Shown here: positions 16,807 to 64,000 of the stretch, one piece after another
How positions within the stretch are numbered: the first letter of the stretch is position 1
How the letters are laid out: every line of letters begins with the position of its first letter
Origin: Candidatus Tectimicrobiota bacterium
Lineage (GTDB): Bacteria; Tectomicrobia; Entotheonellia; Entotheonellales; Entotheonellaceae
Direction of reading: 5' to 3'
NCBI GenBank assembly: GCA_026005175.1
Contig: BPKO01000009.1
Span: 95,459-159,458 of the forward strand
DNA: 64,000 bases
The notes under the pieces: generated by a model
Database searches by the model: none
What the model saw: only the letters and a program-made list of their open reading frames with translations
What the model was told of the DNA's origin: nothing
Made by a program: the position numbers and the translations under genes

Positions 16807-16911
16807 GGGTTCTGCAAAGACGGCCATGTCGCACGAGGCGCTGCGCCACGTTGCCGCTTGTCTTCTGGCGGTGCTCGACAAGGAGAAATCGGTCTGCCGC
16901 ATCCCGGTGAC

Positions 16912-16924
16912 CCTTTAGTAAAGG
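16912..16924. promoter_or_regulatory. Small palindrome upstream of dehydrogenase
   Basis: CCTTT-AGT-AAAGG, 34 nt before the ATG of the zinc dehydrogenase; possible operator. The 150-nt gap between UGSC gene and dehydrogenase otherwise holds only a 30-codon open frame (16829-16918) without support. Confidence 0.25.
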
Positions 16925-16957
16925 TGTCCTTAAACCAAGATACAAGGAGCGCACGGC

Positions 16958-18088
16958 ATGAAAGGTCGAGTGGCAGTGCTGCGAGAGTACGGCGGCGACT
17001 TTGAGCTGCGCGAGTATCCCTTGCCGGAGGTGGAGCCGGGAGCCATCCTGGTGCGGCTGACGCGTGCCGGCATCTGCGGCTCCGACCTCCACATCTGGCG
17101 CGGGGAGATGAAAGCCGTCTACGGCGAGACGCCCCGCGATCTTACCTTTGGCCACGAGATGTGCGGCCGCGTGGCGCGCCTTGGCGCCGGCGTCCACACC
17201 GACTCCATGGGGCAGCCGCTGCGCGAGGGCGACCGCATCACCTTTGCCTACTTCTTCCCCTGCGGCCGCTGCCGCGTCTGCCTGCAGGACGAGCTGGGCA
17301 ACTGCCCGCGCAAGGGGCGCCCCAACCGCGTGGCCGGCACGCCGCCTTATTTCAACAACGCTTACGCCGACTACTACTACCTGCGGCCCAACCACTACGT
17401 CTTCAAGATTCCCGACGAGATCTCCGACGACATGGCCACCCCGGTCAACTGCGCCCTGGCGCAGGTGGTGTACGGCTTGCAGCGCGCCGGCCTGCGTTTT
17501 GGCCAGACCGTGGTCATTCAGGGCGCCGGCGGCCTGGGGCTCAACGCGGTGGCCGTGGCGCGCGACATGGGCGCCGATCGCATCATTGTCTTTGACCGCA
17601 TCCCGGCACGGCTGGAGCTGGCCCGCGCCTTTGGCGCCGACCACGCCCTTAGCCTCGCCGACTTGCCCACCCCGGAAGCGCGCATCGAGGCGGTGCGGGA
17701 GCTCACCGACGGCTTTGGCGCCGACGTGGTGGCCGACTTGGTGGGCTACCCGGAAGTCATTCCCGAAGGGCTGCGCATGCTGCGCAGCGGCGGCTGCTAC
17801 CTGGAAGTGGGCAACATCGCGCCGGGCAACGTCTTTAGCTACGACGCCACGGCGCTGGTGCGGGGCAACACGCGCCTGGTGGGCACCTCCAACTACTCGC
17901 CCTGGGCCATTCCCCAGGCCCTGGCCTTTATGCGCCGCAACCTCAAGCGCTTTCCATTCGAGCGCCTCATTTCCCACACCTTTCCGCTGGAGCGCATCGG
18001 CGAGGCCTTTCGCCAGGCCGAGTGGCAGCGCCGCGAGGGCGACCCGCTGCGCCTCTCCCGCGCTGCCCTGCGCATGGACGGCGACTAG
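16958..18088 (+). CDS. Zinc-binding alcohol dehydrogenase (MDR family)
   Basis: 376 residues; AAGGAGCGCACGGC precedes the ATG. Catalytic zinc site GICGSD and FGHEMCG; structural zinc site CGRCRVCLQDELGNC has the four cysteines; Rossmann motif QGAGGLGLNAVAVA. Oxidises an alcohol or reduces a carbonyl with NAD(P); the HYVFKIPDEISDDMATPVNCALAQV segment resembles sorbitol/threonine dehydrogenase-like MDRs. It follows the UGSC selenoprotein in the same orientation and probably serves the same pathway. Confidence 0.9.
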   Translation: MKGRVAVLREYGGDFELREYPLPEVEPGAILVRLTRAGICGSDLHIWRGEMKAVYGETPRDLTFGHEMCGRVARLGAGVHTDSMGQPLREGDRITFAYFFPCGRCRVCLQDELGNCPRKGRPNRVAGTPPYFNNAYADYYYLRPNHYVFKIPDEISDDMATPVNCALAQVVYGLQRAGLRFGQTVVIQGAGGLGLNAVAVARDMGADRIIVFDRIPARLELARAFGADHALSLADLPTPEARIEAVRELTDGFGADVVADLVGYPEVIPEGLRMLRSGGCYLEVGNIAPGNVFSYDATALVRGNTRLVGTSNYSPWAIPQALAFMRRNLKRFPFERLISHTFPLERIGEAFRQAEWQRREGDPLRLSRAALRMDGD

Positions 18089-48787: not shown

Positions 48788-49013
48788 GCGTTGTCCTTTT
48801 TGGCTCTGGACAAGGGGGAAGGCAATGACGGAGAGTGATATCGATCTCCTGATCATCAGGGAGCATTTTCCCAGGAGCCGCCTGGATAGGCACTGGGAGG
48901 TATTGGAAGTTGCGAAAGTGGTGTTGAAAGAGTTTACCGCACAGGCGCCGATCATCCCTCTCACGCCTGCAGAAGCACAAGTGACAAAATCCTTTTACCT
49001 CCCGGAGAAATAG
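48788..49013 (+). pseudogene. Nucleotidyltransferase (MNT-like) remnant
   Basis: VSVVLFGSGQGG in the frame of nt 48790, then after a one-base shift MTESDIDLLIIREHFPRSRLDRHWEVLEV to 49013. Together they resemble the minimal nucleotidyltransferase motif GSxARG...SDIDLLI, but the first motif lacks the Arg-rich context and the frame is broken; the N-terminus is missing. Possibly the antitoxin half of an old HEPN/MNT pair. A 24-codon frame at 49047-49121 follows, without recognisable identity. Confidence 0.55.
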
Positions 49014-49161
49014 TAGAGCTATGAATGCTCTGGTAGCGGCGAGTCATGGCCTGGGCCAATGAGCTCCTGAGGATATTCGAAGAGTTGTTCTGGGTGCAGG
49101 CGCGGCTACGCTTCGATTGAATATAGCAGCAGGATAGCTACGCGCTGTAGGGAGTCAGACG

Positions 49162-51522
49162 ATGACTCTTACAGATCATATGGAACATTTAATTGAATTG
49201 GTTGCGCACATAGCGCAACAAGTTCAAGGAGAAAGGGATACCAGGGCCCAGTTGGGTTACCTGCGTCGGATTCTCCAAGGGCACAGCGACGAAGCAGGCT
49301 TACTCAACGCGCTAATCACCAGTCTCGACGTTCCGCAACTCCGGCGGCTCTTGCACAGAACGCAACCAAGTGACACTCCTACTCCTGCTGTCGTTCCAGG
49401 CAAGAGAATCACGCTTTACAAAGCTACGCTGCCTGGGGAACCGCAGGCGCGTGTAGCTGCGGATAGTCTGATTGCCCGGTATTTGAACTGGCTCGCACGC
49501 AACCCCCACCGCCGTGCTGTTACCCTCGTAAACACAGAGCGGCATGTCGTGCTTTTCGTTCCCGAAGGCAGCGAATTCAACTCTGAAAAAGCTTGGTGCG
49601 AGTTTGTGACCTTTGTTTTCTCAGGCGAGGAACTCGAACGAACCTTCGTTGCCATGCTTAACTCAATCAAACTCTCTGAGCGTGGCTTTGGTGTTCCGGA
49701 GTTTCCTATCATCAGTGAAGATCAATTGCTAATAGTTCTAGCATGGCTTTTACGAAGTGTACAATCTGCGGAGCAGCGCCTCAGGAGACGTGAGGTGAAG
49801 ATTGCGGAGCTAGAGAAAAACCTACGAAACTTCGAAATTAAGGAGCAAAGTAAAATAAAAAGAGACATTGAGACATTAAAGAAAAATCAGAACAAAGAGG
49901 TTGACAAATATGAAAAAAACTTCAAGAGAAAATTCAATTCATTCATAGAAAATCAGGATACTGATAAAAAAAGAAAAAAATCAAAAATTGAATTACCCAA
50001 ACACAAGTTATTGGAATGTATGGAGCTGTTTGACCTATCAGGGGGTAATCCATTCGAATTTCTGCGGCGGTATGAGGACAAACATCTACAGAGTTTCAAC
50101 CGCATACGTCCCCTTATGGCGTTCTTCACGGAGCGAGCCGCACAGCAGATCAACCTCACTCGAGGAGACAACCTTGCCAATGCGGTGGTTGAAATCGTGC
50201 GGCTGACGACTTGGTTGGAATCCACGGACTCGGACGAGATAGGCGCGATTCGCGCTCGAAAGCTCAAGCTACAGCCACTCTTATCTGAAAATCCAGGCGA
50301 ATTCCTTAAGCGCTCCCCAGGTGACGGTACAGGTGAGTTCTGCTACGTCTGCGGTAGGCGGTTGGCTTCCGAAGACAAAACACAGGTGAACCGCTTCGTC
50401 TTTCGCTCTCCTTCCCAACGGCTTCAGTCGGTTCGTGGCGAGCAACGCCCTCCCGTCTGCCGTCACTGCGTGGCCATAGCTTTTGCCTGCCCTCTTAAGC
50501 CGAGCGACCAGAGTGTGATTATCAGGCTCAGTCCAGCTCTACAGGACGGTTGGAAAGGAGGACATTCAGCAGCGGTGCTCGGTGAACTCGAAGCGTTTCT
50601 ACGAGGATTGACACTCTCTCAGCTCGATCTGGCAGCCGGCAATTACTTGATGCTGACTAGTAGCGAACGAGTCAAGGTCGGAAAGAGATGGAGGTATCTG
50701 GCTGATGTGATTGGTGCTGTCCCCTATGCCTATTTACGACTCGCAGACACGTTTGAGTATCAGGTTTTCGATGACTACGTATCTCGTATAGTCACTGGTA
50801 TATCGGACATCGAGCTGGCACCGCACAGGCTGGCTTTTTTGAGTATCCTGATCAGGGCATTGCAGCTGCGTCTGACAGAGGGTAGCGACGTTAATCGCCC
50901 GCTTGCGACAGCTATCCGTTACGTACTTGCTGATGAACCCATACTTGCAATTTATGAACTTGTAAGCCAACCTAACATCGATCAGAGATGCCGCCAAGAG
51001 AGAGTGCGCATCGAGATCGAGAGATCACTGGAGGTGTGGATGCAAATGACCAGGGCAGAAATGATAGGCGACATTGTGGCTATGGCCGGACTGCTCTACC
51101 CGTTCGTGGACCAGACACTCCGCGAAATGCGCAAAAGGAGCGAACCGGAGCTTGATCCTGATCGGGAGGCATCAAAGTTGATAGAGGAAGTTGATGAAGT
51201 ATTCAACTTCCTCTATCGCTTTACAAACAATACGACGTACAGTACGACCCGGCTGTATCGCAATCCAACAAATTGGTTTACTTACGAAAAAACAAAGAAA
51301 TTACTTGAAAAAATTGGTGTAGACATAAATGAACGTGAAAAGAATGAAGGTAACTATAATTTTATTGAGATCAATGTTAATGATGTTGAAGCAGCTTATA
51401 GGTTTTTTTCAGAAAAAATTTACAAGAATGATGCTGACTGGAGATCTTTTACATATCGGTTGAAGCTAGCGCTCTACAGTCGTTTCCCTGGTCTTGGAGT
51501 CAAGCGGGAACAATCCCGATAG
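49162..51522 (+). CDS. cas10d: Type I-D-like CRISPR effector large subunit (Cas10d/Csc3-like), no HD domain visible
   Basis: 786 residues. Zinc-finger cysteines C394-x2-C397 and C433-x2-C436 (FCYVCGRRL ... PVCRHCVAIAFA) are typical of Cas10/Cas8 large subunits. Residues about 200-285 are a Lys/Glu-rich coiled coil encoded by strikingly A-rich DNA. The C-terminal 160 residues are helical and carry an internal start (see 51040). Identity rests mainly on position before csc2-csc1 and the zinc finger. Unlike classic Cas10d there is no N-terminal HD motif, and no GGDD palm motif is seen; the HD nuclease sits in Cas3 instead. First gene of the cas operon. Could alternatively be named a Cas8-type large subunit. 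Confidence 0.7.
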   Translation: MTLTDHMEHLIELVAHIAQQVQGERDTRAQLGYLRRILQGHSDEAGLLNALITSLDVPQLRRLLHRTQPSDTPTPAVVPGKRITLYKATLPGEPQARVAADSLIARYLNWLARNPHRRAVTLVNTERHVVLFVPEGSEFNSEKAWCEFVTFVFSGEELERTFVAMLNSIKLSERGFGVPEFPIISEDQLLIVLAWLLRSVQSAEQRLRRREVKIAELEKNLRNFEIKEQSKIKRDIETLKKNQNKEVDKYEKNFKRKFNSFIENQDTDKKRKKSKIELPKHKLLECMELFDLSGGNPFEFLRRYEDKHLQSFNRIRPLMAFFTERAAQQINLTRGDNLANAVVEIVRLTTWLESTDSDEIGAIRARKLKLQPLLSENPGEFLKRSPGDGTGEFCYVCGRRLASEDKTQVNRFVFRSPSQRLQSVRGEQRPPVCRHCVAIAFACPLKPSDQSVIIRLSPALQDGWKGGHSAAVLGELEAFLRGLTLSQLDLAAGNYLMLTSSERVKVGKRWRYLADVIGAVPYAYLRLADTFEYQVFDDYVSRIVTGISDIELAPHRLAFLSILIRALQLRLTEGSDVNRPLATAIRYVLADEPILAIYELVSQPNIDQRCRQERVRIEIERSLEVWMQMTRAEMIGDIVAMAGLLYPFVDQTLREMRKRSEPELDPDREASKLIEEVDEVFNFLYRFTNNTTYSTTRLYRNPTNWFTYEKTKKLLEKIGVDINEREKNEGNYNFIEINVNDVEAAYRFFSEKIYKNDADWRSFTYRLKLALYSRFPGLGVKREQSR
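51040..51522 (+). CDS. Probable internally translated small subunit (Cas11d-like)
   Basis: Within the large-subunit gene and in its frame. GGAGGTG at 51030-51036 stands 3 nt before ATG 51040 (Met627), with a second in-frame ATG at 51046. The product would be about 160 residues, mostly helical (MQMTRAEMIGDIVAMAG..., VDQTLREMRKR, LIEEVDEVFNFLYRF), ending with the parent protein. Internal translation of Cas11 from the 3' end of cas10d/cas8 is established for type I-D, I-B and I-C systems. The site is inference from sequence. Confidence 0.6.
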   Translation: MQMTRAEMIGDIVAMAGLLYPFVDQTLREMRKRSEPELDPDREASKLIEEVDEVFNFLYRFTNNTTYSTTRLYRNPTNWFTYEKTKKLLEKIGVDINEREKNEGNYNFIEINVNDVEAAYRFFSEKIYKNDADWRSFTYRLKLALYSRFPGLGVKREQSR

Positions 51523-51546
51523 AGAAAACAAGGAAGGAGAAAAAGT

Positions 51547-52431
51547 ATGTCAGGATTGCCAAAGGCTAATGGTCAACGTTATCACTTTGATATTTATGCG
51601 ATTCTGGAGGGAACCCAGGAACTCTATTTCGGCCATGAAGTGATGATCAACGTGAATATGGTCGAGACGGTGAAACTCGTGTTGCCCAATGGGGAGGGTC
51701 TCGAAAAGTGCTATTTCTCCCCCACAAAGCGGCGCGGGATCGAGCGCCGCAGTCTGTTGTGGGCTCCCTGTCCAAATGGGCAAATGCTAGGGGAGAACCT
51801 CGACTGTCATATCCCGAGGACATGTGCTAAACCGGAGTGCCCGATCTGTAGTGTCTATGGAGGATTGATAGTCGGTAAGCAAACACTGATTGGTAGGCTT
51901 ACGCATGCCGGAGGAGTCGCGATTCAACGGCTGTTACCTGAAGAGAAGCAGCGGGCAATGCACCCTACGGCAATTGTAAACGATCCAAACGAAAATCCAC
52001 CACAGCCATTCAAGCGCCAGTATAACGAGCCTGGGCTGCTGTATCCCGTTTACAATCACTGCTTGAGCGTTACTGAGCAGGAATTCACAGCTGTTGCTTA
52101 TGCTTTTCTCGATAGCTTGGCTCGTATAGGGTCGGGCAATCCCAAAGGAGCCACCATTTATGAAACCGATGGAGAGCCTTTATTGGTCGTTGATAAGTAC
52201 CTCGTCCCTCATGGTGAACGCCCTGTGATTTCTCCTGCCGAGACGTCCGTAGAAAATGCGATTCGGCGCTTCCAAAGCAGAGCATGGGCCGTTAATGGTG
52301 GTAATTGGGATGGCGGGTCTGCAACCACTGATAATGGGAACTTCCAGCGTTGGGTCGGCAAGATGGCCTACCAGAAGCTGCAGGACTGGGCAGATACTTT
52401 TGTCAACGATGTGCTCAAGAAATATCGGTGA
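51547..52431 (+). CDS. csc2: CRISPR effector backbone protein Csc2-like (Cas7 family)
   Basis: 294 residues; AAGGAGAAAAAGT before ATG. RAMP-type protein with a Cys cluster (CHIPRTCAKPECPICSVYGG) similar in pattern to the zinc-binding CxDCPDCxVYG region I recall for Csc2, followed by LLYPVYNHCLSVTEQEFTAVAYAFLDSLARIGSGNPKGATIYE, the conserved C-terminal half in which Csc2 has a VFNNVLRTRHYGA-like helix. Forms the crRNA-binding filament of the Cascade complex. Second gene of the operon, 24 nt after the large subunit. Confidence 0.75.
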   Translation: MSGLPKANGQRYHFDIYAILEGTQELYFGHEVMINVNMVETVKLVLPNGEGLEKCYFSPTKRRGIERRSLLWAPCPNGQMLGENLDCHIPRTCAKPECPICSVYGGLIVGKQTLIGRLTHAGGVAIQRLLPEEKQRAMHPTAIVNDPNENPPQPFKRQYNEPGLLYPVYNHCLSVTEQEFTAVAYAFLDSLARIGSGNPKGATIYETDGEPLLVVDKYLVPHGERPVISPAETSVENAIRRFQSRAWAVNGGNWDGGSATTDNGNFQRWVGKMAYQKLQDWADTFVNDVLKKYR

Positions 52432-52449
52432 CCGTTAGCGTAAGGTGCG

Positions 52450-53325
52450 ATGATGTATGCGATGGCATTCACCCTGAGGCCCACAGCCGGACTGACCTTT
52501 CGTATCTTGCCAGGCTCGATTCTTGACATCGCGACCTACCCCTTTGTGCCGCCTACAGCATTATCGGGCTTCCTGCGCCGCCTGGCGATGATGAGTGCGG
52601 GGTTAGAATTCCCCAACACGGGACCAAACGATGAGAACACGCCATTCTATGCCTTGCCTCGACAGCTCGTTGCACTCGGTGCCTATCCCCTCGGTGCGTG
52701 CACGCGACCGCCGCATCGTACGTATCGCAAAGGGCCCCGTGACTTTGGCCATAATGCCTTTTCCACGATTTACCGGGGCAAGACCAAGGGACCAGAAAAC
52801 ATCCAGCTCCACACCTGGGAATACCTTCTAGCGGATGCATTCATCGGCTATGTTGTCTCCGAAGATTGCGAAGAGTTAGGCCGCCTGACCGCATTGAAAG
52901 GCTACGGTGCGAAACTCGGCAAAGAAGGATTTGCCTTTGTCGAAGGCATCAATGGCCCGTTTGCTCTTGAACCGATCGAAACTCAGGCATCCCCTTCGGT
53001 TGTCGTCCCTGCGGATGCTCTGTTCGACAAGAATCCACAAGTGGCCGCTGATATATTCACCCTTTACAGTTTCGTATGGCGTAGCACCCCTGCCGGGCAG
53101 AGCCAAGCCCCGCAGAGAAGGAGAAGGGCAGGTAGGCTTGAGCCGGTGTATTCAAGTAATCCTTTTGATCAGCATCCGAGTCCCATTGTGGGTTACAAGC
53201 CCTTCGTAGCTACCCTCCTCAAGCCCGGTTCGAGAGTGACTCTCGACTTCTGGCATCACGGTGAGGTGTTCTTTCCCGCTGTACTTATAGATGTCCTCCA
53301 GGGGGAGATCAGCGATGACAATTGA
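52450..53325 (+). CDS. csc1: CRISPR effector protein Csc1-like (Cas5 family)
   Basis: 291 residues; ATG 52450 (52453 also possible). N-terminal MAFTLRPTAGLTFRILPGSILDIATYPFVPPTALSGFLRRL has the Cas5/RAMP pattern (beta strand, proline turn, ALxGxLxxL helix). Longer than many Csc1. Position between csc2 and cas3 and overlap of 11 nt with cas3 support the assignment. Would cap the 5' handle of the crRNA. Confidence 0.65.
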   Translation: MMYAMAFTLRPTAGLTFRILPGSILDIATYPFVPPTALSGFLRRLAMMSAGLEFPNTGPNDENTPFYALPRQLVALGAYPLGACTRPPHRTYRKGPRDFGHNAFSTIYRGKTKGPENIQLHTWEYLLADAFIGYVVSEDCEELGRLTALKGYGAKLGKEGFAFVEGINGPFALEPIETQASPSVVVPADALFDKNPQVAADIFTLYSFVWRSTPAGQSQAPQRRRRAGRLEPVYSSNPFDQHPSPIVGYKPFVATLLKPGSRVTLDFWHHGEVFFPAVLIDVLQGEISDDN

Positions 53326-56023
53326 CGTGGCCAGGGTTTTCTTTCATGAAGGGGATGATCCCCGTGTCCCGTCAGAGATCCTCCTGCAACGGCTCGAAAA
53401 TCATACAGGTAATGTTGCTAAGCTTGTAGAGCTCTGGCAGCAGGAGGCCGATGACACCGATTTAGTTCTCAATCCTGCAACTGCGAATAAGGTTATCGCA
53501 GCGGCGAAGCTTCATGACGTTGGAAAGCCTGAGCGGTTCCACATCGAGGCACGAACTCGAAGACAGAGACTCGACGGGCATGACGTGGAGATCTTCACCA
53601 AGTATGAATATTCCTTCAGCGGCCATCGTTTCCTCGCTGAAAGCGAGGATCTTTATGTTCAAGAGCTTGCGCAGGGTCATCACACATACTCCGTTGAGGA
53701 TCTCACCGGGGCTATCGCACGTCTGCGACGCCGAGGCTACGATGCCAGCCGCTTTGCGCAGGATCTCTACATTCTGGAGATGTGCGACCAGATCGAAGCC
53801 GAGATTGCCGTCCGTACGCTTGAGGGGGAGACCGAAGGTCGGACGTTCATGGAGTTCACCGTTATTCCTGAGAATGACAAAACCTATGCTCTCGACCCCT
53901 ATCCGTTCGACCGAGAGCAGATCTCCCTTACATTTGAATACTATCGGATGGTTCTCCTAGATGACCAGAAGCGGGTATTGCTCGGGATAAAGCCAGAAGA
54001 CCCTCGCAGACTGGCGCAGACGCTGGAAGGTTTTATCAAGGATGCCCTTAGGGCTAGTTCGTTACCAGTCGAGCAGGTATCCGTTGAGATCAAACCTCTA
54101 CTCAGGGAATCGGTTCCTCGGCGACCGTTCAATGATATCCAGCAGCTCTACAGAGACATTTGCGGTTTCGCCCCCAACGCGATGCAGTGCGACCTATACC
54201 AGCGGCTAGCTCAGGGTGACGATGCGTTGCTGGTCCGGGCGCCCACGGGTTCAGGGAAGACCGAAGCTGTCTGGCTACCGGCCCTGGCTCTTGGCAAGCG
54301 CCTCATTATGCCGCTGCCGACCCGGAGCCTACTTGAGGATCACGAAAGGCGGCTGACGAACTATCTGCGGAAGTTCTCCTCGCTCACGCAGAACAGGAAC
54401 CGCCCTATCGCCATGATTATTGACACCGGTGAGGAGTCACGCCGTTATGTCTTCGTCAATGGGCAGATGCGGGCTCCTCAGAGGCGACACCTTTACAAAG
54501 CCGAGGTCATCCTGACGACTCTCGATAAGTTTCTATATCGATACTTTGGCTTTGGAGATATGCACAAATCATTCATCTATCCGCTCCGCATACGTGATGG
54601 AGCCCGTACATTGATCTGCTTTGATGAGGCACACACCTACGACGGCGTGTCTTTTATTAATTTCCGTCGACTGGTGCGCGCACTCTACGAATCGGGTCAG
54701 AGCCTGGTAGTGATGACAGCAACAATGCCTGATGCCTACAAAAAAGACATGGATTTCCTGAGAGAACTTGATTATACAGGTACTTCAGCGTTGCCAGAAC
54801 GTAAACTCTCTATCGTACACTCCGAGCATGACGATCTCTCGGAGGCGCTCGTCGCACAGACTGTAACGCTTTGGCAGCGTGGAATGCGCAAAATCATCGT
54901 CGTGGCCGAGAGCGTCGGTTTCCGCACTGAAATCGAAGACAGGCAACGGCGTGCGCTCCGCGATGGGGCTTTCAACGTCTATGAGAAGCTCAAGCAACAT
55001 AATGGCCTCACGGGGCTCGTGGCGCGCGAAAGCCTACTGCTCTATCACGGGAGGATGGACGCTATCGAGCGAGCACGGGTTTATGAGAGCCTCAAGAGGC
55101 TAGACAATGACGCGGCGGCTGCCTATGTCGTTGTCACAACGAGTGCCATCGAAGTCGGTTGTGACCTGAACGCTCAGGCGCTGGTGACTGAGATATGCAA
55201 TCCCGAGCAGCTCATCCAGCGGGCTGGTCGTTGTAACCGGCGGGCAAACTTCGAGACTGCCGAAGTGGTGGTTGTGATCCCGAAAGATCCTTACCCAGAT
55301 GGTGGCTGGATAAAACCTTATGTTCGCTCCTTGAGTAGAGATGAAGAAGCCGATTATCTTGAGTATCTGAAGGGGATGCATGGGAGCACATTTGACCACA
55401 ATGCAGTGATGAAAAAGATAGCGAAGCGACCAACTGCGGACTATCGTGTGGAGACACTCTTTGAAATGCTCGATGAATATGTTTACGGAGCGCGTCTTGA
55501 AAATAAACCGCTTCACGATCGTGGATTTGTTGTTACGCGAAGTTGGGAACCTACTCTTATTTTTGAGATTCCCTACGACAGAGGGTACCGACGGGTTTCT
55601 GTGCCATTTAGCATGTGTGCGTGCGGCAGGGGAGAGTATCCGGATCCCGGGGCCTTAGTGCAGCAGGTTGACTACAACCACGACTCAAACAGGGAATCCC
55701 TCAGGCGTGTTTCCGGGGGGCCCATATATGGAAAACAGATTGTGGTCAGGCTCTCTCAAGGACTGTTGCAAAGCTCATTTGAATACGACTCTGAGTGCGG
55801 TCTCGTGGATGTTCCAAAAGTTTTTACTTGGAAAAGAAATTTCGATTACAAAGTTGTCATGCAGGTACCTAATGAAGACGGTTCTCCAGGGCCAATCATC
55901 TGGTATTTTCGCGATATGCCTGATGATGGCTATTTTACGGGCTATGTCAAAGAGATCACCATCGAGGAAGTAGAGGATCAGGAAGTCGAAGAAGGCGCTA
56001 TAGAAGACGACACTGAGGAGTGA
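53315..56023 (+). CDS. cas3: CRISPR-associated Cas3 with N-terminal HD nuclease and helicase
   Basis: 902 residues from ATG 53315 (GGGGGAGATCAGCG upstream). HD domain: H30 in NHTGNVA, H67-D68 in AAKLHDVGK, then SGHRF and QGHHTYS histidines. Helicase: Walker A APTGSGKT (about residue 310), DEAH box CFDEAHTYDG (about 433), VMTATMP, and motif VI IQRAGRCNRR (about 635). C-terminal acidic tail. Unwinds and degrades target DNA after Cascade binding. In classical type I-D the HD is on Cas10d and Cas3 is helicase only, so this fusion is a variant trait. Ends just before a degraded ATPase and a TA pair. Confidence 0.93.
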   Translation: MTIDVARVFFHEGDDPRVPSEILLQRLENHTGNVAKLVELWQQEADDTDLVLNPATANKVIAAAKLHDVGKPERFHIEARTRRQRLDGHDVEIFTKYEYSFSGHRFLAESEDLYVQELAQGHHTYSVEDLTGAIARLRRRGYDASRFAQDLYILEMCDQIEAEIAVRTLEGETEGRTFMEFTVIPENDKTYALDPYPFDREQISLTFEYYRMVLLDDQKRVLLGIKPEDPRRLAQTLEGFIKDALRASSLPVEQVSVEIKPLLRESVPRRPFNDIQQLYRDICGFAPNAMQCDLYQRLAQGDDALLVRAPTGSGKTEAVWLPALALGKRLIMPLPTRSLLEDHERRLTNYLRKFSSLTQNRNRPIAMIIDTGEESRRYVFVNGQMRAPQRRHLYKAEVILTTLDKFLYRYFGFGDMHKSFIYPLRIRDGARTLICFDEAHTYDGVSFINFRRLVRALYESGQSLVVMTATMPDAYKKDMDFLRELDYTGTSALPERKLSIVHSEHDDLSEALVAQTVTLWQRGMRKIIVVAESVGFRTEIEDRQRRALRDGAFNVYEKLKQHNGLTGLVARESLLLYHGRMDAIERARVYESLKRLDNDAAAAYVVVTTSAIEVGCDLNAQALVTEICNPEQLIQRAGRCNRRANFETAEVVVVIPKDPYPDGGWIKPYVRSLSRDEEADYLEYLKGMHGSTFDHNAVMKKIAKRPTADYRVETLFEMLDEYVYGARLENKPLHDRGFVVTRSWEPTLIFEIPYDRGYRRVSVPFSMCACGRGEYPDPGALVQQVDYNHDSNRESLRRVSGGPIYGKQIVVRLSQGLLQSSFEYDSECGLVDVPKVFTWKRNFDYKVVMQVPNEDGSPGPIIWYFRDMPDDGYFTGYVKEITIEEVEDQEVEEGAIEDDTEE

Positions 56024-56032
56024 AGAACTGCT

Positions 56033-56604
56033 ATGGTACAACCACTCTTCCGTGTAGCCATATTCTCTTCTATAGAACCGACACTCCAGGACGACCACCT
56101 CTGGTGGCAGGGGGAACGCCTGTTCGACCTGCCGGCACTGCGCGGCTGGGTATTTCAGCCAGTCCTGCAGGGGATAAAACATGGGCGGACGCCAGCGACA
56201 GCGCTGCGGGGCCCCGCGGCAGGTGGGCGAAACCACCCTGCTCAACCAGGTCATCGAGGCGCTGCTCAATGCAGGCGTGGCTGTCAAGCGAGTCTTTCGA
56301 GTGCAGTTTGGTGAGCTCCCGACTCGACGCAAAATATCGCTCAATCAAGCCAGACTCCACACAGCGGCGAGCGCAACAAATCCCTTGCGATCATGTCTAC
56401 CGGGGCTTGCGGGGCAATGATCCGTACTATCTCCGCAGGGACAAGAGGGATTTCCTCCGGGGGGCCCGCAATGCAGAGCTGCAAAGCGGCCGGGCGGACG
56501 ACTTGGTATGCCACCGTTTCCATGGGTCGTCTCTACACAAAATCGTTAAAGCTTTCCACGGGTATACGGCGCTATCAAGTGAGGGAGCCGGGAGAGATCT
56601 ACAT
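56033..56604 (+). pseudogene. AAA ATPase (DUF4143-type) remnant
   Basis: LPALRGWVFQPVLQGIKHGR-TPATALRGP in the frame of ATG 56033 continues, after a shift near 56216, as RQVGETTLLNQVIEALLNAGVAVKRVFRVQFGEL, a Walker A P-loop (GPRQVGxTT, with Lys replaced by Glu) typical of bacterial AAA ATPases of the DUF4143 group. The remainder to 56604 is open in several frames but shows no domain. Truncated, frameshifted and with a substituted P-loop Lys: a decayed insertion between cas3 and the TA pair. Confidence 0.55.
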
Positions 56605-56841
56605 ATGACAGCAAAGCGAGTGGAGGATATCTACGAGCAACACATCAAGTCCTTGCCTGACGTCGAACAGTTACGGCTAATTGCCTTGATTGCTAAGAAG
56701 CTCATCGAAACAGTTGAGACGGCAACGCACTCGCAGCGCAGCTTGCTGGAACTAGAAGGCTTAGGTGCCGAAATATGGCAGGGTATTGACGCACAACAGT
56801 ACGTGGACGAGTTGCGCAAGGAATGGGACCATCGCCCCTGA
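56605..56841 (+). CDS. Antitoxin of PIN toxin pair inside the cas operon
   Basis: 78 residues from ATG 56605 (GGGAGAG upstream). VEDIYEQHIKSLPDVEQLRLIALIAKKLIE is a helical segment resembling small antitoxins of the type in which LPxxEQLxLxxxI precedes a toxin-binding tail; the tail has IDAQQYVDELRKEWDHR. Stop TGA overlaps the ATG of the PIN gene (TGATG), a classic TA arrangement. Confidence 0.72.
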   Translation: MTAKRVEDIYEQHIKSLPDVEQLRLIALIAKKLIETVETATHSQRSLLELEGLGAEIWQGIDAQQYVDELRKEWDHRP

Positions 56842-57288
56842 TGCGGCTCGATGACGTCCTCGTAGGCACTACAGCCCTTGGGTTCGATACGGCTCCGTTT
56901 ATCTATTTCGTCGAACGTCATCCGTCTTATCTGGCGGTGATGCGCGAAATCATCCGGCGTGTAGACGCTGGGGAACTTGAGGGCTACAGTTCCGTCGTGA
57001 CGCTTACCGAGGTGCTTACGTTACCCATGCGCCTTGGCAAGGGCGGTATAGTACAGGAATACCGTGATGTGCTGCTCCACAGCCGCCATTTCACGCCGAT
57101 TCCTCTCAATGCCGCCTTGGCGGAACGGGCCCGCATTGCTTCGCGCGCGCTACACCCTACGGACTCCAGATGCCCTGCAGATTGCAACCGCGCTGCACGC
57201 TGGCTGTCAGAGCTTCCTCACTAACGATAGAGCCCTCAAGAGAGTAACAGATCTCCGGGTCTTGATACTCCAAGAACTTGAACTGTGA
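56841..57288 (+). CDS. PIN-domain toxin, one frameshift
   Basis: ATG 56841: LGFDTAPFIYFVERHPSYL holds the first PIN Asp; SSVVTLTEVLTLPMRLGK holds the Glu. A +1 shift in the CGCGCGCGC run near 57142-57150 moves into RYTLRTPDALQIATALHAGCQSFLTNDRALKRV with the remaining Asp residues, ending at 57288 where TGA overlaps the possible GTG of cas6. About 148 residues after correction. Ribonuclease toxin; if the shift is genuine the toxin is dead while the antitoxin is intact. Confidence 0.78.
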
Positions 57289-57302
57289 AAAGGACCTCCG
57301 AT

Positions 57303-58247
57303 ATGCCCTATGCTCTTGTCCTCCATTGCTTCGCCGCTGATGGGAGGATGCAGCCTGACGATCTGCAAGGGCAAAAGACGCTGGCTCTGTTTCTACAAGA
57401 GCTGGTCCAGAAACAAGATGCCGCCATAGCGACGCGGCTGCATGCCCCTCACAACCCTAAGCCGTTTACCACCGCCCTCCTCACCCCCCCTCAGCCGCGC
57501 CGCAGACTTCCTCGCCGTGGAAAACCGGTGAGGGTACAGGACCCACGCGGAGACGCCCGTGCACCTCACGAAGTGAAGATCCGCATCACACTGCTCGATG
57601 ATGCCCTGTATCCTCTCGTCTTACAGTTCTTCTTACAACACCTGGAGGGAACACCTGTGCTGCGTCTTGGGCAGACGCCGCTAATCGTCTCGCGCGTCCT
57701 GGTCACCCCAGAAAGCGGAGAGCCTTGGGCTGGTTGTGCGCGCTTTGCGGACCTTCTTGCAGCGGCATCAGAGACAGAGACCGCCTGGACGGTACATTTC
57801 GCCACCCCCACAGCCTTCAAGGCAGGCGATGCAGAATTGCCACTCCCCATTCCCCGTCTCTGCTTCCAGAGCTGGCTGCAAAGCTGGGACGCCTATGCCC
57901 CTTTCCCCTTCTTCGCTGAGCAAAACGCGCGTAAGGCATTTCTGGCAGAAGTCGTTGAGGCCCAAGTCTCGATCACTTACGCGCAGCTACGCGGGGCACA
58001 TCAGCCCTTGTACTTCGACGGGTCGCGCACCCACGTCTGCGGCTTTGTGGGAACGTGTAGGTTCGCTGTGCGACCAGGGCGAACGTCACCTGCTTCTCGG
58101 AAGCTCCTAGCCACCTTGGTGCGCTACAGCTATTACGCGGGAACCGGGCGCAAGACCACCATGGGCATGGGATTGACAAAGCCACTGGAGGAGGAGGCGC
58201 CATGCCGCAGGATGCCGGTGAGCGCCACGACGAGGACTACGTGTTGA
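57303..58247 (+). CDS. cas6: CRISPR endoribonuclease Cas6
   Basis: 314 residues from ATG 57303; GTG 57285, overlapping the toxin stop, is an alternative. RLHAPHNPKPFTTALL near residue 47 supplies the N-terminal His and Lys region, and the C-terminal YYAGTGRKTTMGMGLTKPL is the Gly-rich loop of Cas6. The last 45 nt overlap cas4. Expected to cut each repeat 3' of the hairpin CCCT-GAA-AGGG to leave an 8-nt ATTGAAAC handle. Confidence 0.92.
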   Translation: MPYALVLHCFAADGRMQPDDLQGQKTLALFLQELVQKQDAAIATRLHAPHNPKPFTTALLTPPQPRRRLPRRGKPVRVQDPRGDARAPHEVKIRITLLDDALYPLVLQFFLQHLEGTPVLRLGQTPLIVSRVLVTPESGEPWAGCARFADLLAAASETETAWTVHFATPTAFKAGDAELPLPIPRLCFQSWLQSWDAYAPFPFFAEQNARKAFLAEVVEAQVSITYAQLRGAHQPLYFDGSRTHVCGFVGTCRFAVRPGRTSPASRKLLATLVRYSYYAGTGRKTTMGMGLTKPLEEEAPCRRMPVSATTRTTC

Positions 58248-58840
58248 TTTCGGCACTCAACCAGTACAACTATTGCCCACTTCGCTGCTACTGGATGTTT
58301 GTGGAGCACGAATATGCCGACAACGAGCACACCATTGAAGGCCGTTTAGGACATGCGCGGGTGCACGCCGAGGCGCATACCACCCGTGGCGAGCTCTTCC
58401 AGCTTCGCAGCGTCTACCTGTATTCCAAGCGCTACGGCATTTGTGGTAAGGCCGACCTGATCGAAGAGCGGAGCGGGGCGATTTATCCCGTGGAATACAA
58501 AAAGGGACGGCTGGGCCACTGGACCAACGACGCCTTGCAGCTATGCGCGCAGGCGCTGTGTCTGGAAGAGATGCTGGCTGAGGCGCACGGGCGACCCGTC
58601 CATATCCCCCAGGGGTACATCTTTTATGCCGGCACGGGCCGCCGCAAAGCCGTCCCGTTGACGCCCGCACTGCGTCATCTCACCATTGAAACCATTGCCG
58701 CGGTGCGCACCCTGCTGCGCACGCGGCAGCGGCCGCAGGTGGGTTACTCGGCCCGCTGCAAGGGCTGTAGCCTGTATCACATCTGTTTGCCTAGAGAAAC
58801 GGCCATGCTGCGGAAACGTCGACAGCAGGAGAAGCAATGA
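58202..58840 (+). CDS. cas4: CRISPR-associated exonuclease Cas4
   Basis: 212 residues. N-terminal cluster Cys C25 in YNYCPLRCYW, RecB-type nuclease residues in GICGKADLIEE and YPVEYKKGRLG, QLCAQALCLEEM, and C-terminal CKGCSLYHIC completing a 4Fe-4S site. Trims prespacers and selects PAM ends for integration. Overlaps cas6 upstream and cas1 downstream by four bases. Confidence 0.95.
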   Translation: MPQDAGERHDEDYVLISALNQYNYCPLRCYWMFVEHEYADNEHTIEGRLGHARVHAEAHTTRGELFQLRSVYLYSKRYGICGKADLIEERSGAIYPVEYKKGRLGHWTNDALQLCAQALCLEEMLAEAHGRPVHIPQGYIFYAGTGRRKAVPLTPALRHLTIETIAAVRTLLRTRQRPQVGYSARCKGCSLYHICLPRETAMLRKRRQQEKQ

Positions 58841-59838
58841 CCACGCTGTACATCACCCAACAGGATACTGTCCTGCGCAAGGTCGATGAGCGCTTGAAAG
58901 TCACCCAAAAGGGTACGACGCTCATCGATATACCCATGATCAAGGTATCGCAGGTTGTCATTATGGGACGGGTTACCGTCACGGCGGCCACCTTGCAGGC
59001 GCTGCTGGAGCGGCAGATCCCGGTTTGCTATTTGACCCAGCATGGGCGATACATTGGCCGCGTCGAGCCCAGTCTGTCCAAAAACGTGCTGCTGCGCAGT
59101 GCCCAGTACCGTGCGGCATTCGATACGGTACGCAGCCTAGCGCTGGCACGGCAAATGGTACGTGGGAAACTGGCCAACATGCGCGTCATGTTGCAGCGGG
59201 CCAACCGTGACTTGCAAAACTCAGCGGTGACGCAAGCAGTCGCTCAACTCAAGGCCCACGTGACGGCTGCGGAAGTGGCCACCAGCCACGAGCAGCTCCG
59301 CGGCATAGAAGGCGCGGGCTCGGCGGCGTACTTCGGGGTCTTTGACGCCTTGCTCAAGCCCTCCGGGATGCACTTCGTCAAGCGCGTGCGGCGGCCGCCG
59401 ACCGATCCGGTCAACGCGCTGCTGAGCTTTGGCTATGCCTTGCTCGCCAACGACATGCAGAGCACGGTCAACGCCGTTGGTTTTGATCCGTACCAGGGAT
59501 ACTTACACGTTGAGCATTACGGACGTCCTGCACTGGCCCTCGATTTGATGGAGGAATTCCGTCCTCTGATCGTGGATTCCGTGGTCCTCACCTGTGTCAA
59601 CAAACGCATCATCGGACCAAAGGATTTTGTGATAGAGCTGGGACAGGTACATCGACTTACCGATGCGGCACGACGGAAGTTTCTCATTCAGTACGAGGAA
59701 CGGAAACAAACTGAAGTCCATCATCCAGTTTTTGGATATAAAGTAACTTATGCACGATGTCTTGAATTACAAGCACGCCTTTTAGGGAAATATTTGAAAG
59801 GTGAAATTGAAGAATATATTCCTTTTGTAACAAGGTGA
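58837..59838 (+). CDS. cas1: CRISPR integrase Cas1
   Basis: 333 residues. Metal ligands E158 (GIEGAGSAAYF), H224 (GYLHVEHYG) and E239 (DLMEEFRP) are present. Typical Cas1 beta-rich N-terminus (TVLRKVDERLKV). Integrates prespacers with Cas2. The last part of the gene is markedly AT-richer than its start. Confidence 0.97.
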   Translation: MTTLYITQQDTVLRKVDERLKVTQKGTTLIDIPMIKVSQVVIMGRVTVTAATLQALLERQIPVCYLTQHGRYIGRVEPSLSKNVLLRSAQYRAAFDTVRSLALARQMVRGKLANMRVMLQRANRDLQNSAVTQAVAQLKAHVTAAEVATSHEQLRGIEGAGSAAYFGVFDALLKPSGMHFVKRVRRPPTDPVNALLSFGYALLANDMQSTVNAVGFDPYQGYLHVEHYGRPALALDLMEEFRPLIVDSVVLTCVNKRIIGPKDFVIELGQVHRLTDAARRKFLIQYEERKQTEVHHPVFGYKVTYARCLELQARLLGKYLKGEIEEYIPFVTR

Positions 59839-59842
59839 AGAA

Positions 59843-60118
59843 ATGTACATAGTTATATCATATGATATTGAAGATGATAAAAGAAGGAATCGAATTCATC
59901 GTATCTTAAAGAATTTTGGACAATGGGTACAGTATAGTGTTTTTGAGTGTGATCTGACTAGGAGTCAGTATCTTGTTATGCGTCATCGACTTTCTGAGTT
60001 CATCAAGAAGGCGAAAGGCGATAGTGTACGCTTCTACTTCCTCTGTGAGGATTGTCAGCGCAAGGTCGAGCGCATTGGGGGGAGCGAGCCCTCTCGGGGG
60101 CCGACGATCATCGTCTAA
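59843..60118 (+). CDS. cas2: CRISPR-associated Cas2
   Basis: 91 residues, starting 4 nt after the cas1 stop. MYIVISYDIEDDKRRNRIHRILKNFGQWVQYSVFECDL is the Cas2 ferredoxin fold with Asp8. Scaffold of the Cas1-Cas2 integrase. Followed by the array leader. Confidence 0.97.
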   Translation: MYIVISYDIEDDKRRNRIHRILKNFGQWVQYSVFECDLTRSQYLVMRHRLSEFIKKAKGDSVRFYFLCEDCQRKVERIGGSEPSRGPTIIV

Positions 60119-60126
60119 TTTTTTTT
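60103..60126 (+). terminator. Terminator-like hairpin and T8 at end of cas operon
   Basis: GACGATCATCGTC overlapping the cas2 stop, followed by eight T (60119-60126). Short stem but with a real T-run, so a plausible intrinsic terminator separating cas and array transcription. Confidence 0.5.
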
Positions 60127-60322
60127 CTTGTCCGATGCGAGCACCGAAGCTATCATGCTTTCCTGTGGAGACGCTCGCAAGCCAAAAGCGCTTGATTTGT
60201 AACCCCTTAGAGGTGAGGTATGGCAAAGTGGGGCGCTGGGGAGGCTCCCATAGTCTATCACAGATGCCTTGCTCGCAATGCGACTGGGAAGTCTTCCAGA
60301 GAGAACCCCATAGAGCTCAAGC
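60119..60322 (+). promoter_or_regulatory. CRISPR leader
   Basis: 204 non-coding nt between cas2 and the first repeat, on the 5' side of repeats whose 3' end is ATTGAAAC, hence the leader. Begins with a T-run; no obvious -35/-10 pair could be assigned. Should hold the array promoter and integration signals. Confidence 0.75.
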
Positions 60323-63300
60323 GTCTGAAAGACCATTAGGCCCTGAAAGGGATTGAAACAGTGCGTCGCGCTCGCATCTCCATCACGTCGGCGCTGGCGG
60401 CCGGTCTGAAAGACCATTAGGCCCTGAAAGGGATTGAAACCAGCACCAGCCGCGGCTAAAGCCTGCATAGCGCCATCGAGTGAGAGTCTGAAAGACCATT
60501 AGGCCCTGAAAGGGATTGAAACTTTGTCAATCCCCAAGCGCCGCCGCGGCTCAAGCGCGGCGTAGGGTCTGAAAGACCATTAGGCCCTGAAAGGGATTGA
60601 AACAATAATTGTTGGGCCACAGCAAGCTGCCGCCTGGACTCCCTAGGGTCTGAAAGACCATTAGGGCCCTGAAAGGGATTGAAACTGTCGACGCCTGCTC
60701 GGTGCTCCTCTGGGGCAGCGCCGACGGGGTCTGAAAGACCATTAGGCCCCCCTGAAAGGGATTGAAACCGTCGAGCCAGCCACGAGTCCTGGCCGGAGGT
60801 GCGCTCAGCGCGGCGGTCTGAAAGACCATTAGGCCCTGAAAGGGATTGAAACTGAGGCGAATCGTAATGATTGCGTTATTAGGAGAATGCGTGATCGTCT
60901 GAAAGACCATTAGGCCCTGAAAGGGATTGAAACATGATGAATCGTGTGGAATGCCGCATGCGGGCGCGTGCTGGGCACGTCTGAAAGACCATTAGGCCCT
61001 GAAAGGGATTGAAACCCGGCTACCGGCGCGGGGATCTGATAGCCAGATGTGTCCTAGGTCTGAAAGACCATTAGGCCCTGAAAGGGATTGAAACAGGCGA
61101 TCAGCTCTGCCACGCTGTCACCCAGGGCCAGCCTAGTTTGTCTGAAAGACCATTAGGCCCTGAAAGGGATTGAAACCCGGGCAACTACCTGATCTAGTTG
61201 GCTTTTCATCAATTGGGGCAGGTCTGAAAGACCATTAGGCCCCTGAAAGGGATTGAAACTTGGCGAAGGCGTGCCAAGGCAATGCCCCAGACGTACGCCG
61301 GGTCTGAAAGACCATTAGGCCCCCCCCTGAAAGGGATTGAAACCTCGTACCCCCTCGCGCAAAATCCATGCAGGCGCCTAGCGGTCTGAAAGACCATTAG
61401 GCCCTGAAAGGGATTGAAACATCGATGCACCATCGCCAGCCGTCAGCTGCCGGGCGTAACCAGCGTCTGAAAGACCATTAGGCCCTGAAAGGGATTGAAA
61501 CTAGGGATCTGAGCGAACGCACGCCACGCGGCCGCCCCTGCGAAGGTCTGAAAGACCATTAGGCCCCCCTGAAAGGGATTGAAACTCACCCACTCGGGGC
61601 GCCAACAAGGCAGCCGTGCTTGTCGCGATGCGGTCTGAAAGACCATTAGGCCCTGAAAGGGATTGAAACCTGGGTCATTGGCGGTACTGCCGCCGGGGAC
61701 TTGAGCCGGATCTGCGTCTGAAAGACCATTAGGCCCTGAAAGGGATTGAAACAGGGCCTGCCGGCGCTGGCCAATGCGCGGCATTTGCCGGAGTCTGAAA
61801 GACCATTAGGCCCTGAAAGGGATTGAAACGTTCCCGAAAGGGCCCATCATCTCGCCACTACCAACCGGCGGTCTGAAAGACCATTAGGCCCTGAAAGGGA
61901 TTGAAACTTCGTACTTCACGCGAGAGCGCCCTGAGGACTACCGTCCGCCCTCGTCTGAAAGACCATTAGGGCCCTGAAAGGGATTGAAACCGGGGCCGGC
62001 GATTGCATTGGGGCAGGCGGATCCTCCAACCAGCGGTCTGAAAGACCATTAGGCCCTGAAAGGGATTGAAACGCGAGCTCAATGGCCAATCATGAGCCAG
62101 CGGGCTCTGAAAGACCATTAGGCCCTGAAAGGGATTGAAACCGCGTCCCAGCTCTGCCCCCGGGCACCTTCGACGTCTGAAAGACCATTAGGCCCTGAAA
62201 GGGATTGAAACTGGTTTGCATATATATCCAGGAATAGGCAATAGTGGTCTGAAAGACCATTAGGCCCTGAAAGGGATTGAAACGATCCGCGCGCCAGCCT
62301 GCCAGCGCAGCGCTCGGGTCTGAAAGACCATTAGGCCCTGAAAGGGATTGAAACTCCGCGGCTAGATCTGCGCTGGGCTGGCCAGCCGCAAATCTGAAAG
62401 ACCATTAGGCCCTGAAAGGGATTGAAACCACCACGTCGCGCCGCGCCTGTACGACTTGCGGGCCCCTCAGGTCTGAAAGACCATTAGGCCCTGAAAGGGA
62501 TTGAAACCGGCTCACCAGCGGGGCCTCCGCATTCCTCGCCACACCAGCCGGCGGTCTGAAAGACCATTAGGCCCTGAAAGGGATTGAAACATGAAGCTAA
62601 CATGGTGGGCTCGGTCTGAGCCCCCGTGGATTGCGTCTGAAAGACCATTAGGCCCCCCTGAAAGGGATTGAAACTCGGATGTCGTTTGCCAGCTGCGGGC
62701 GCGTCGCCGGGCCCTTTGTCTGAAAGACCATTAGGCCCTGAAAGGGATTGAAACGCGACCATGCAACGGATGCGCAGATGTAGCTCGCGTCTGAAAGACC
62801 ATTAGGCCCTGAAAGGGATTGAAACAAATCAGCTGGTGCTCACGATGTACAGCACGGTCTGAAAGACCATTAGGCCCTGAAAGGGATTGAAACTCTCGCA
62901 CGAAATGACCTGTTGGCATCGTCTGGCGTCTGAAAGACCATTAGGCCCTGAAAGGGATTGAAACTGACGCGGCTCCAACCGTGCTGCGGCTGTCTGAAAG
63001 ACCATTAGGCCCTGAAAGGGATTGAAACTCGTAGCCCGGCTCACGCCTTGCGCGGCAGCCAGCGAGGTCTGAAAGACCATTAGGCCCTGAAAGGGATTGA
63101 AACCCGCTCACGTTTCCGCGCGCGGCCCGCGGAAGCTGGGGCGCCTCGTCTGAAAGACCATTAGGCCCTGAAAGGGATTGAAACGCCAGCGAGCAGCGAG
63201 GCGCTGGCACGCCTGGGGTCTGAAAGACCATTAGGCCCTGAAAGGGATTGAAACCACCGCACGTACGGGCGCCGCGGCAGAGCGCGCGTCTGAAAGACCA

Positions 63301-64000
63301 TTAGGCCCTGAAAGGGATTGAAACCGAAGTCAATTTGCTGCAGCGCTTACGGCATCCGGTCTGAAAGACCATTAGGCCCTGAAAGGGATTGAAACGTAGG
63401 CATTACAGCACGATCCTCGAATGTGCTTGATTTGATCTGAGTCTGAAAGACCATTAGGCCCTGAAAGGGATTGAAACCCCAAAAGATCACTGCATTTAGG
63501 ACCCGGGTCTGAAAGACCATTAGGCCCTGAAAGGGATTGAAACCGACGAGAGGCAGGACTAGCCGTCCGCGCCTGGTCTGAAAGACCATTAGGCCCTGAA
63601 AGGGATTGAAACCGGTCGCAGGGGATCTTCCAACCAGAGGTCTGAAAGACCATTAGGCCCTGAAAGGGATTGAAACGATCTCGTCCAATCTGGGATAGCG
63701 CACGGGGTCTGAAAGACCATTAGGCCCTGAAAGGGATTGAAACCCACCACGCGCCACGTCACACTGGTCCGCGACGTTCTGAAAGACCATTAGGCCCTGA
63801 AAGGGATTGAAACCTTCTTCCCCTCCCACTTTGGGCACCGTGTCTGAAAGACCATTAGGCCCTGAAAGGGATTGAAACCGAGACTGCACCGCGACAAGCG
63901 GCGAGCCACCTCGGTCTGAAAGACCATTAGGCCCTGAAAGGGATTGAAACCTGGTGGTATCGCAGGTATGCGCCTGGCGATACCGGTCTGAAAGACCATT
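60323..64000 (+). CRISPR. CRISPR array, 48 full repeats plus one partial, continuing past the window
   Basis: Repeat 37 nt: begins GTCTGAAAGACCATTAGG, ends CCCTGAAAGGGATTGAAAC. First copy 60323-60359, last complete 63914-63950, partial from 63986. 48 spacers: numbers 1-21 are 40-47 nt; later ones are mostly 27-38 nt with islands of long ones (27-30, 36, 40). Repeat variants: GGG for GG at 60648 and 61953; C-run of 4 at 61222, 6 at 60729, 61546 and 62635, 8 at 61302; base 1 is C at 62105, A at 62392, T at 63777. Two mini-hairpins (GTCT-GAA-AGAC and CCCT-GAA-AGGG). Handle ATTGAAAC. Transcribed left to right. I saw no duplicated spacer. Confidence 0.99.

What the first reader, a model, noticed from the sequence alone, without database searches (positions are those of the whole stretch)
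60360..63985. Two spacer-length classes in one array, separated by age
Counting repeat to repeat, spacers 1-21 (leader side, youngest) are 40-47 nt, averaging about 44. Spacers 22-48 are mainly 27-38 nt (21 of 27), with long ones only at 27-30, 36 and 40. No spacer is 39 nt, so the distribution is bimodal rather than broad. Normal arrays keep one ruler length set by Cas1-Cas2-Cas4. This suggests that the adaptation machinery acting on this array changed, or that two adaptation modules (this one and another in the genome) fed it, with the long-spacer mode taking over recently.
Basis: seen in the sequence. Interest (0 to 1): 0.82.

Follow-up and report, generated by a model that had tools for sequence, protein, structure and literature searches.

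The report
CRISPR spacer length switched genome-wide
In this bacterium the newest CRISPR memory entries are about one turn of DNA helix longer (about 44 instead of 34 letters) than most older ones, and a second, separate CRISPR array in the same genome made the same switch, so the cause is probably shared by the whole cell rather than a change in one array's own machinery.

Summary
The array holds 48 spacers: 1-21 are 40-47 nt, and of 22-48, 21 are 27-38 nt and six are 42-46 nt. None is 39. A two-mode fit (32.8 and 44.0 nt) beats one mode, with a change point after spacer 21 (permutation p = 5e-5). The contig ends inside the array, so its oldest end is missing. The pattern is abnormal: 36 arrays beside related Cas1d proteins (1502 spacers) are single-peaked near 35 nt, SD at most 3.0.

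The new point: a separate type I-B array on another contig made the same switch. Six of its 8 youngest spacers are 43-45 nt against 1 long in 43 older ones (p = 1e-5), with the same modes (33.7 and about 44). Relatives of that module measure 36-37 nt. Each array keeps its own repeat length (37 and 30 nt). The two leaders share a 32-bp block beside the first repeat; the type III array lacks it and shows no recent switch.

A shared, trans-acting change in prespacer size is the best reading. A second module with a native 44-nt ruler is not supported. No targets or PAMs were found. The assembly is indel-prone, but not enough to create a 10-nt step.

The parts
49162..51522 (+). cas8-type large subunit, 786 aa
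   Evidence: PADLOC Cas8b (I-B) PDLC01527, E 6e-154; no Pfam or NCBIfam match
51547..52431 (+). cas7
   Evidence: PADLOC Cas7b PDLC01388, E 1e-115
52450..53325 (+). cas5
   Evidence: PADLOC Cas5b PDLC01389, E 5e-84
53291..56023 (+). cas3, HD plus helicase
   Evidence: TIGR01587 cas3_core 134 bits; Pfam HD and DEAD; PADLOC best Cas3d E 9e-56
57285..58247 (+). cas6
   Evidence: Pfam CRISPR_Cas6; PADLOC best Cas6d E 7e-38
58202..58840 (+). cas4, intact open frame; nuclease and Fe-S cysteine motifs present by eye
   Evidence: TIGR00372 134 bits; PADLOC best Cas4d E 9e-73
58837..59838 (+). cas1, intact, 333 aa
   Evidence: TIGR04093 cas1_CYANO (type I-D) 409.7 bits over its cut-off of 385
59843..60118 (+). 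cas2, intact, 91 aa
   Evidence: TIGR01573 65 bits; PADLOC best Cas2d E 8e-37
60119..60322 (+). leader, 204 bp between cas2 and the first repeat
   Evidence: position; sequence
60282..60313 (+). 32-bp leader block shared with the leader of the I-B array on contig C4 (25 of 32 identical, ends 9 and 11 bp before the first repeats)
   Evidence: score 18, none of 1000 shuffled pairs reached it (max 15); not found against leaders of L051, G222 or three others
60323..64000 (+). CRISPR array, 37-nt repeat GTCTGAAAGACCATTAGGCCCTGAAAGGGATTGAAAC, cut off by the contig end
60360..62035 (+). spacers 1-21, long class only (40-47 nt)
62073..63985 (+). spacers 22-48, mainly short class (27-38 nt), long at 27-30, 36 and 40
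62429..62717 (+). spacers 27-30 with their repeats: block of long spacers inside the older part
60648..62674 (+). span of the seven repeats with an enlarged GGCCC centre: 60648-60685, 60729-60768, 61222-61259, 61302-61343, 61546-61585, 61953-61990, 62635-62674
   Evidence: association with long spacers p = 0.004; may be assembly error

Best explanation
Shown: two separate CRISPR arrays of one genome (this one, and a type I-B array on contig C4) took up spacers in the same two sizes, about 34 and 44 nt, about one turn of B-DNA apart, and in both the balance moved to the long size in the most recent acquisitions. Inferred: the cause acts in trans, upstream of integration, on a step that both arrays share, namely how far captured prespacers are trimmed before integration. 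Each array's own integrase still cuts its repeat to the right length (37 and 30 nt), so the integration step itself was probably not exchanged. The most likely site is the end of the prespacer that is not processed by Cas4, which in type I-D is left to an unidentified host nuclease (PMC10212523). When that trimming stops one helical turn short, a 44-nt spacer results. Because long spacers also occur before the switch and short ones after it, this is a shift between two coexisting states rather than a single irreversible gene loss.
For: Same modes in both arrays: three-component fits give 33.7 and 43.9 (this array) and 33.7 and 44.4 (I-B array); change points p = 5e-5 in both; 6 of the 8 youngest I-B spacers long against 1 of 43 older, p = 1e-5. 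Both contigs belong to one genome by tetranucleotide profile: r to contigs C1-C3 is 0.92-0.95 for C9 and 0.82-0.90 for C4 away from the cas operons, against 0.53-0.66 for family relatives. Neither module has a 44-nt ruler elsewhere: 36 Cas1d arrays peak at 35 nt (1.4% at 43 nt or more), the nearest Cas1d relative L051 (65% identity) 36 +/- 2.1, relatives of the I-B Cas1 36-37 nt with SD mostly near 1, the nearest (69%) 36 +/- 0.7. Repeat lengths stay 37 and 30 nt through the switch. In related arrays the upper tail ends at +11 nt, with 8 of 1753 spacers at +10 or +11 and 1 at +9, so a rare state one turn longer may be normal.
Against: The known effects of trimming nucleases are far smaller: loss of Cas4 in Synechocystis I-D adds 1 nt (PMC10212523), loss of RecJ in E. 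coli about 1 nt, loss of DnaQ and ExoT none (PMC9699676). Two DnaQ-type exonuclease genes are present and open, so no broken trimmer was found; the genome is about 77% complete. Three pairs of similar spacers in this array share the leader-distal end and differ at the leader-proximal end, whereas a longer non-PAM end would predict the opposite if the PAM lies on the leader-proximal side as usual. The type III array does not show a recent switch, but its cas1 is broken, so it may have stopped earlier.
Confidence: 0.42

Rival explanations
1. One adaptation complex (the window's Cas4-Cas1-Cas2, the I-B one, or a mixed complex) feeds both arrays through the shared leader block, and that complex, or the choice between two complexes, changed from a 34-nt to a 44-nt product.
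For: 32-bp leader block shared by the two arrays at nearly the same distance from the first repeat, absent from the type III leader and from leaders of relatives; the two arrays that share it also share both length modes, the third does not. Shared acquisition machinery for arrays with different repeats is described (PMC8482600).
Against: Each array keeps its own repeat length, 37 against 30 nt; the two Cas1 proteins are only 35% identical; both sets of cas4, cas1 and cas2 are open; no relative of either uses 44 nt. The shared block could also be a promoter or a host-factor site.
Confidence: 0.27
2. The size depends on the source of the DNA: one route (for example primed uptake from Cas3 products, or infection by a virus that blocks host nucleases) gives long spacers, the other short ones; recent uptake came from the long route.
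For: Long spacers come in clusters (27-30; 1-21; I-B 1-3 and 6-8; type III 49 and 51-54), as episodes would; both classes coexist in every array.
Against: Base composition of the two classes is the same. Pairs 20/42 and 21/43 look like related targets sampled once long and once short. No protospacers found to test it.
Confidence: 0.15
3. The older parts of both arrays were acquired in another host or strain, before the loci moved here; long spacers are simply this host's habit.
For: The cas locus in the window has G+C 0.53 against about 0.67 for the genome; the type III array, possibly older here, also has long spacers at its old end (change point after spacer 48, p = 8.5e-4).
Against: Two loci would have to arrive with the same unusual 33.7-nt mode; long and short are interleaved; relatives measure 35-37 nt with small spread, so the older part is not typical either.
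Confidence: 0.1
4. Artefact of assembly or binning.
For: The assembly has many single-base insertions (uvrB is split over at least six frame pieces; cas7 and cas8 of the I-B locus are split), the array runs to a contig end, and the genome is 77% complete.
Against: Errors of this kind add 0-1 nt per spacer, not 10; 41 of 48 repeats are exactly 37 nt and the I-B and type III repeats keep 30 and 37 nt; long spacers hold no G or C runs above 5 that could account for it; cas genes of the window are all open over 11 kb.
Confidence: 0.06

Closest known systems
Type I-D adaptation module Cas4-Cas1-Cas2 (Synechocystis sp. PCC 6803)
   Same: Cas1 passes the type I-D model cut-off; gene order cas6-cas4-cas1-cas2-leader-array; 204-bp leader; repeat ending ATTGAAAC
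   Different: Synechocystis takes mainly 35-nt spacers varying by 5-6 nt, +1 nt without Cas4 (PMC10212523); here two modes, 33.7 and 44 nt. The effector genes score as I-B (Cas8b, Cas7b, Cas5b).
Cas4-dependent spacer length control (types I-D, V-A)
   Same: A trimming nuclease influences spacer length; mutants shift towards longer spacers (PMC9419969)
   Different: Known shifts are about 1 nt or a changed tail within one system; here a discrete 10-nt step in two systems, both with an open cas4
Arrays with different repeats served by one acquisition machinery (type I-B with type III, PMC8482600)
   Same: Two arrays in one genome with different repeats and a common feature of acquisition
   Different: Here both arrays have their own complete cas4-cas1-cas2; the link is a leader block and identical length modes

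Membership tests
CRISPR array | Direct repeats separated by unique spacers next to cas genes and a leader | tested here: met
Type I-D adaptation module | Cas1 of the I-D (CYANO) family | tested here: met
   TIGR04093 409.7 bits, cut-off 385
Type I-D adaptation module | Narrow spacer length near 35 nt, as in relatives | tested here: not met
   SD 6.1, two modes
Type I-D effector | Cas10d large subunit with Csc1 and Csc2 | tested here: not met
   best matches are Cas8b, Cas7b and Cas5b of I-B; no Cas10d match
Type I-B effector | Cas8b, Cas7b, Cas5b and Cas3 | tested here: met
   a mixed locus, with cas3, cas6, cas4 and cas2 closest to I-D models
Shared acquisition machinery of two arrays | Only one adaptation set for both arrays | tested here: not met
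   each locus has its own cas4-cas1-cas2
Shared acquisition machinery of two arrays | Common leader element | tested here: met
Cas4- or host-nuclease-dependent length control | Loss or change of the nuclease lengthens spacers | not testable with these tools
   no broken nuclease found; needs mutants or protospacers

The most novel reading that the evidence does not exclude
Spacer length in this cell is a two-state trait, quantised by one DNA turn (about 34 and 44 nt), set in trans for all arrays that share a leader element, and switched in both directions over the cell's history.
Probability: 0.25. Interest if true: 0.75.

Novelty: new variant of a known kind. Interest (0 to 1): 0.58.

Why it matters
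Spacer length is usually treated as a fixed property of a Cas1-Cas2 complex. A discrete, shared change in two systems of one cell would show that a step outside the individual cas operons can set it, in steps of a helical turn, and would give a natural handle on the unidentified nuclease that trims the end of the prespacer not handled by Cas4. It also raises the question whether 44-nt guides work in effector complexes built for about 35.

Tried and rejected
Hairpin-rich sources of spacers: folding energies do not differ from dinucleotide shuffles in any class of this genome. PAM remnants inside long spacers: no strong position signal apart from a terminal G (29 of 48) in both classes. Protospacers: none in phages, plasmids, relatives or eight scans of viral contigs; seed hits had unrelated flanks, and a 20-base match of spacer 1 is to eight copies of one element without clear similarity beyond the seed. 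A second array with the same repeat in this genome: none, all 45 matches lie here. A module with a 44-nt ruler: none. Loss of a DnaQ-type exonuclease: two open genes present. Length classes as homopolymer errors: long spacers lack the runs needed.

Full report
Check of the observation. A parse of the window finds 48 repeats of GTCTGAAAGACCATTAGGCCCTGAAAGGGATTGAAAC from 60323 and a partial one at the end. A two-component fit (32.8 +/- 3.2 and 44.0 +/- 1.8) is better than one component (BIC 297 against 318) and the change point lies after spacer 21 (p = 5e-5). The contig ends with the window, so the old end of the array is missing.

Is it unusual? A scan of genome contigs with the window's Cas1 gave 80 loci. 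Arrays next to those Cas1 genes are single-peaked: 36 arrays of 15 or more spacers have SD at most 3.0, and 1502 pooled spacers peak at 35, with 0.07% at 30 nt or less and 1.4% at 43 or more. The nearest relative (L051, Binatia, 65% identity in Cas1) has 36 +/- 2.1. Here SD is 6.1, four spacers are shorter than 30 nt, and 21 of 48 are 43 nt or longer. Arrays of family members of the genome are also narrow.

The rest of the genome. The genome has three cas1 loci and three cas2. On contig C4, 4.5-13.8 kb, lies a type I-B-like locus with cas6, cas8, cas7, cas5, cas3, cas4, cas1 and cas2 and an array of 52 repeats of 30 nt. Read from its leader its spacers are 44, 43, 43, 37, 36, 43, 45, 45, then 30, 36, 33 and so on, 21-37 nt apart from one of 48 near the far end. 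The eighth is followed by a broken repeat, which marks the boundary. Long spacers are 6 of the first 8 and 1 of the other 43 (p = 1e-5). The fitted modes, 33.7 and 44.4, are those of the window's array (33.7 and 43.9). A type III locus at C4 265 kb has an array of 57 repeats centred on 36 nt, with long ones at its old end (change point after spacer 48, p = 8.5e-4); its cas1 is split by a frame break and an IS66-type transposase gene. Tetranucleotide profiles put C4 and C9 with the rest of the genome and apart from family relatives.

Native rulers. Relatives of the I-B Cas1 were found in 46 genomes; the arrays that could be read beside them measure 36-37 nt with SD mostly near 1, and the nearest, at 69% identity, has 36 +/- 0.7. 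What the two arrays share must lie in this cell.

A link between the two arrays. Their leaders share a 32-bp block, 25 of 32 bases, ending 9 and 11 bp before the first repeat (window 60282-60313). The score of 18 was not reached in 1000 shuffles (maximum 15). No comparable match was found between the window's leader and the leaders of L051, G222, L084, L069 or L105, and the type III leader gives only a short chance-level match. This may be a docking site of a common adaptation complex, a host-factor site or a promoter.

Mechanism (inferred). The repeat length stayed 37 and 30 nt through the switch, so each array was still cut by an integrase suited to its own repeat. I therefore place the change upstream, in prespacer capture or trimming. 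In type I-D the non-PAM end is trimmed by an unknown host nuclease (PMC10212523). The counter-evidence is that known nuclease or Cas4 losses move length by about 1 nt. Long spacers before and short ones after the switch argue against one irreversible loss.

Which end is extended? Three pairs of similar spacers in this array (21/43, 20/42, 19/28) share the leader-distal end, 3 against 0.07 expected; two of them pair a long with a short spacer, and 20-21 and 42-43 are neighbours in the same order. In related arrays the clear pairs share the leader-proximal end. If the pairs are true, the extra bases lie on the leader-proximal side. Without protospacers this stays open; each of the three pairs needs a 1-nt gap, which fits assembly indels or chance.

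Caveats. The assembly carries single-base insertions, seen in uvrB, so individual lengths may be off by 1, and the seven enlarged repeats may be errors although they all lie between long spacers (p = 0.004). No targets were found. No paper found in the library describes a two-mode spacer length; the library is open-access only. One genome is not a replicate: sister strains are needed.

Noticed in passing
L030:952-4279 (contig C4, minus strand): The I-B array has a truncated repeat (14 of 30 nt) followed by 18 nt exactly at the border between its long and short spacers.
   Followed up: partly
L031:10532-14675 and 15443-17723 (contig C4): Type III locus with cas1 interrupted by an IS66-type transposase gene; in its array the first repeat and the last three carry the variant GTTGGAAGTTTTGACC while the inner ones carry GTTCGAACCGATGACC, which does not fit simple copying of the first repeat.
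   Followed up: no
window 60648-62674: Seven repeats with 1-5 extra G or C in the central GGCCC, all between two long spacers; slippage in repeat filling or assembly error.
   Followed up: partly
window 61871-63612: Spacers 20-21 and 42-43 are two neighbouring pairs with similar sequences and the same leader-distal ends, as if related targets were sampled twice.
   Followed up: partly
window 60360-63985: The last base of the spacer is G in 29 of 48, in both length classes.
   Followed up: partly
window 56024-57284: About 1.2 kb between cas3 and cas6 holds a PIN-domain gene (56823-57224, probable toxin) and uncertain frames, an apparent insertion in the cas operon.
   Followed up: no
window 49000-60300: The cas operon has G+C 0.53 against about 0.67 for the genome, so it was probably acquired from elsewhere; its effector scores as I-B and its Cas1, Cas2, Cas4 and Cas6 as I-D.
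   Followed up: partly
L032:12439-14384 and L030:9713-12892: Single-base insertions split uvrB, and cas7 and cas8 of the I-B locus are split too; the assembly looks indel-prone in G+C-rich stretches.
   Followed up: yes
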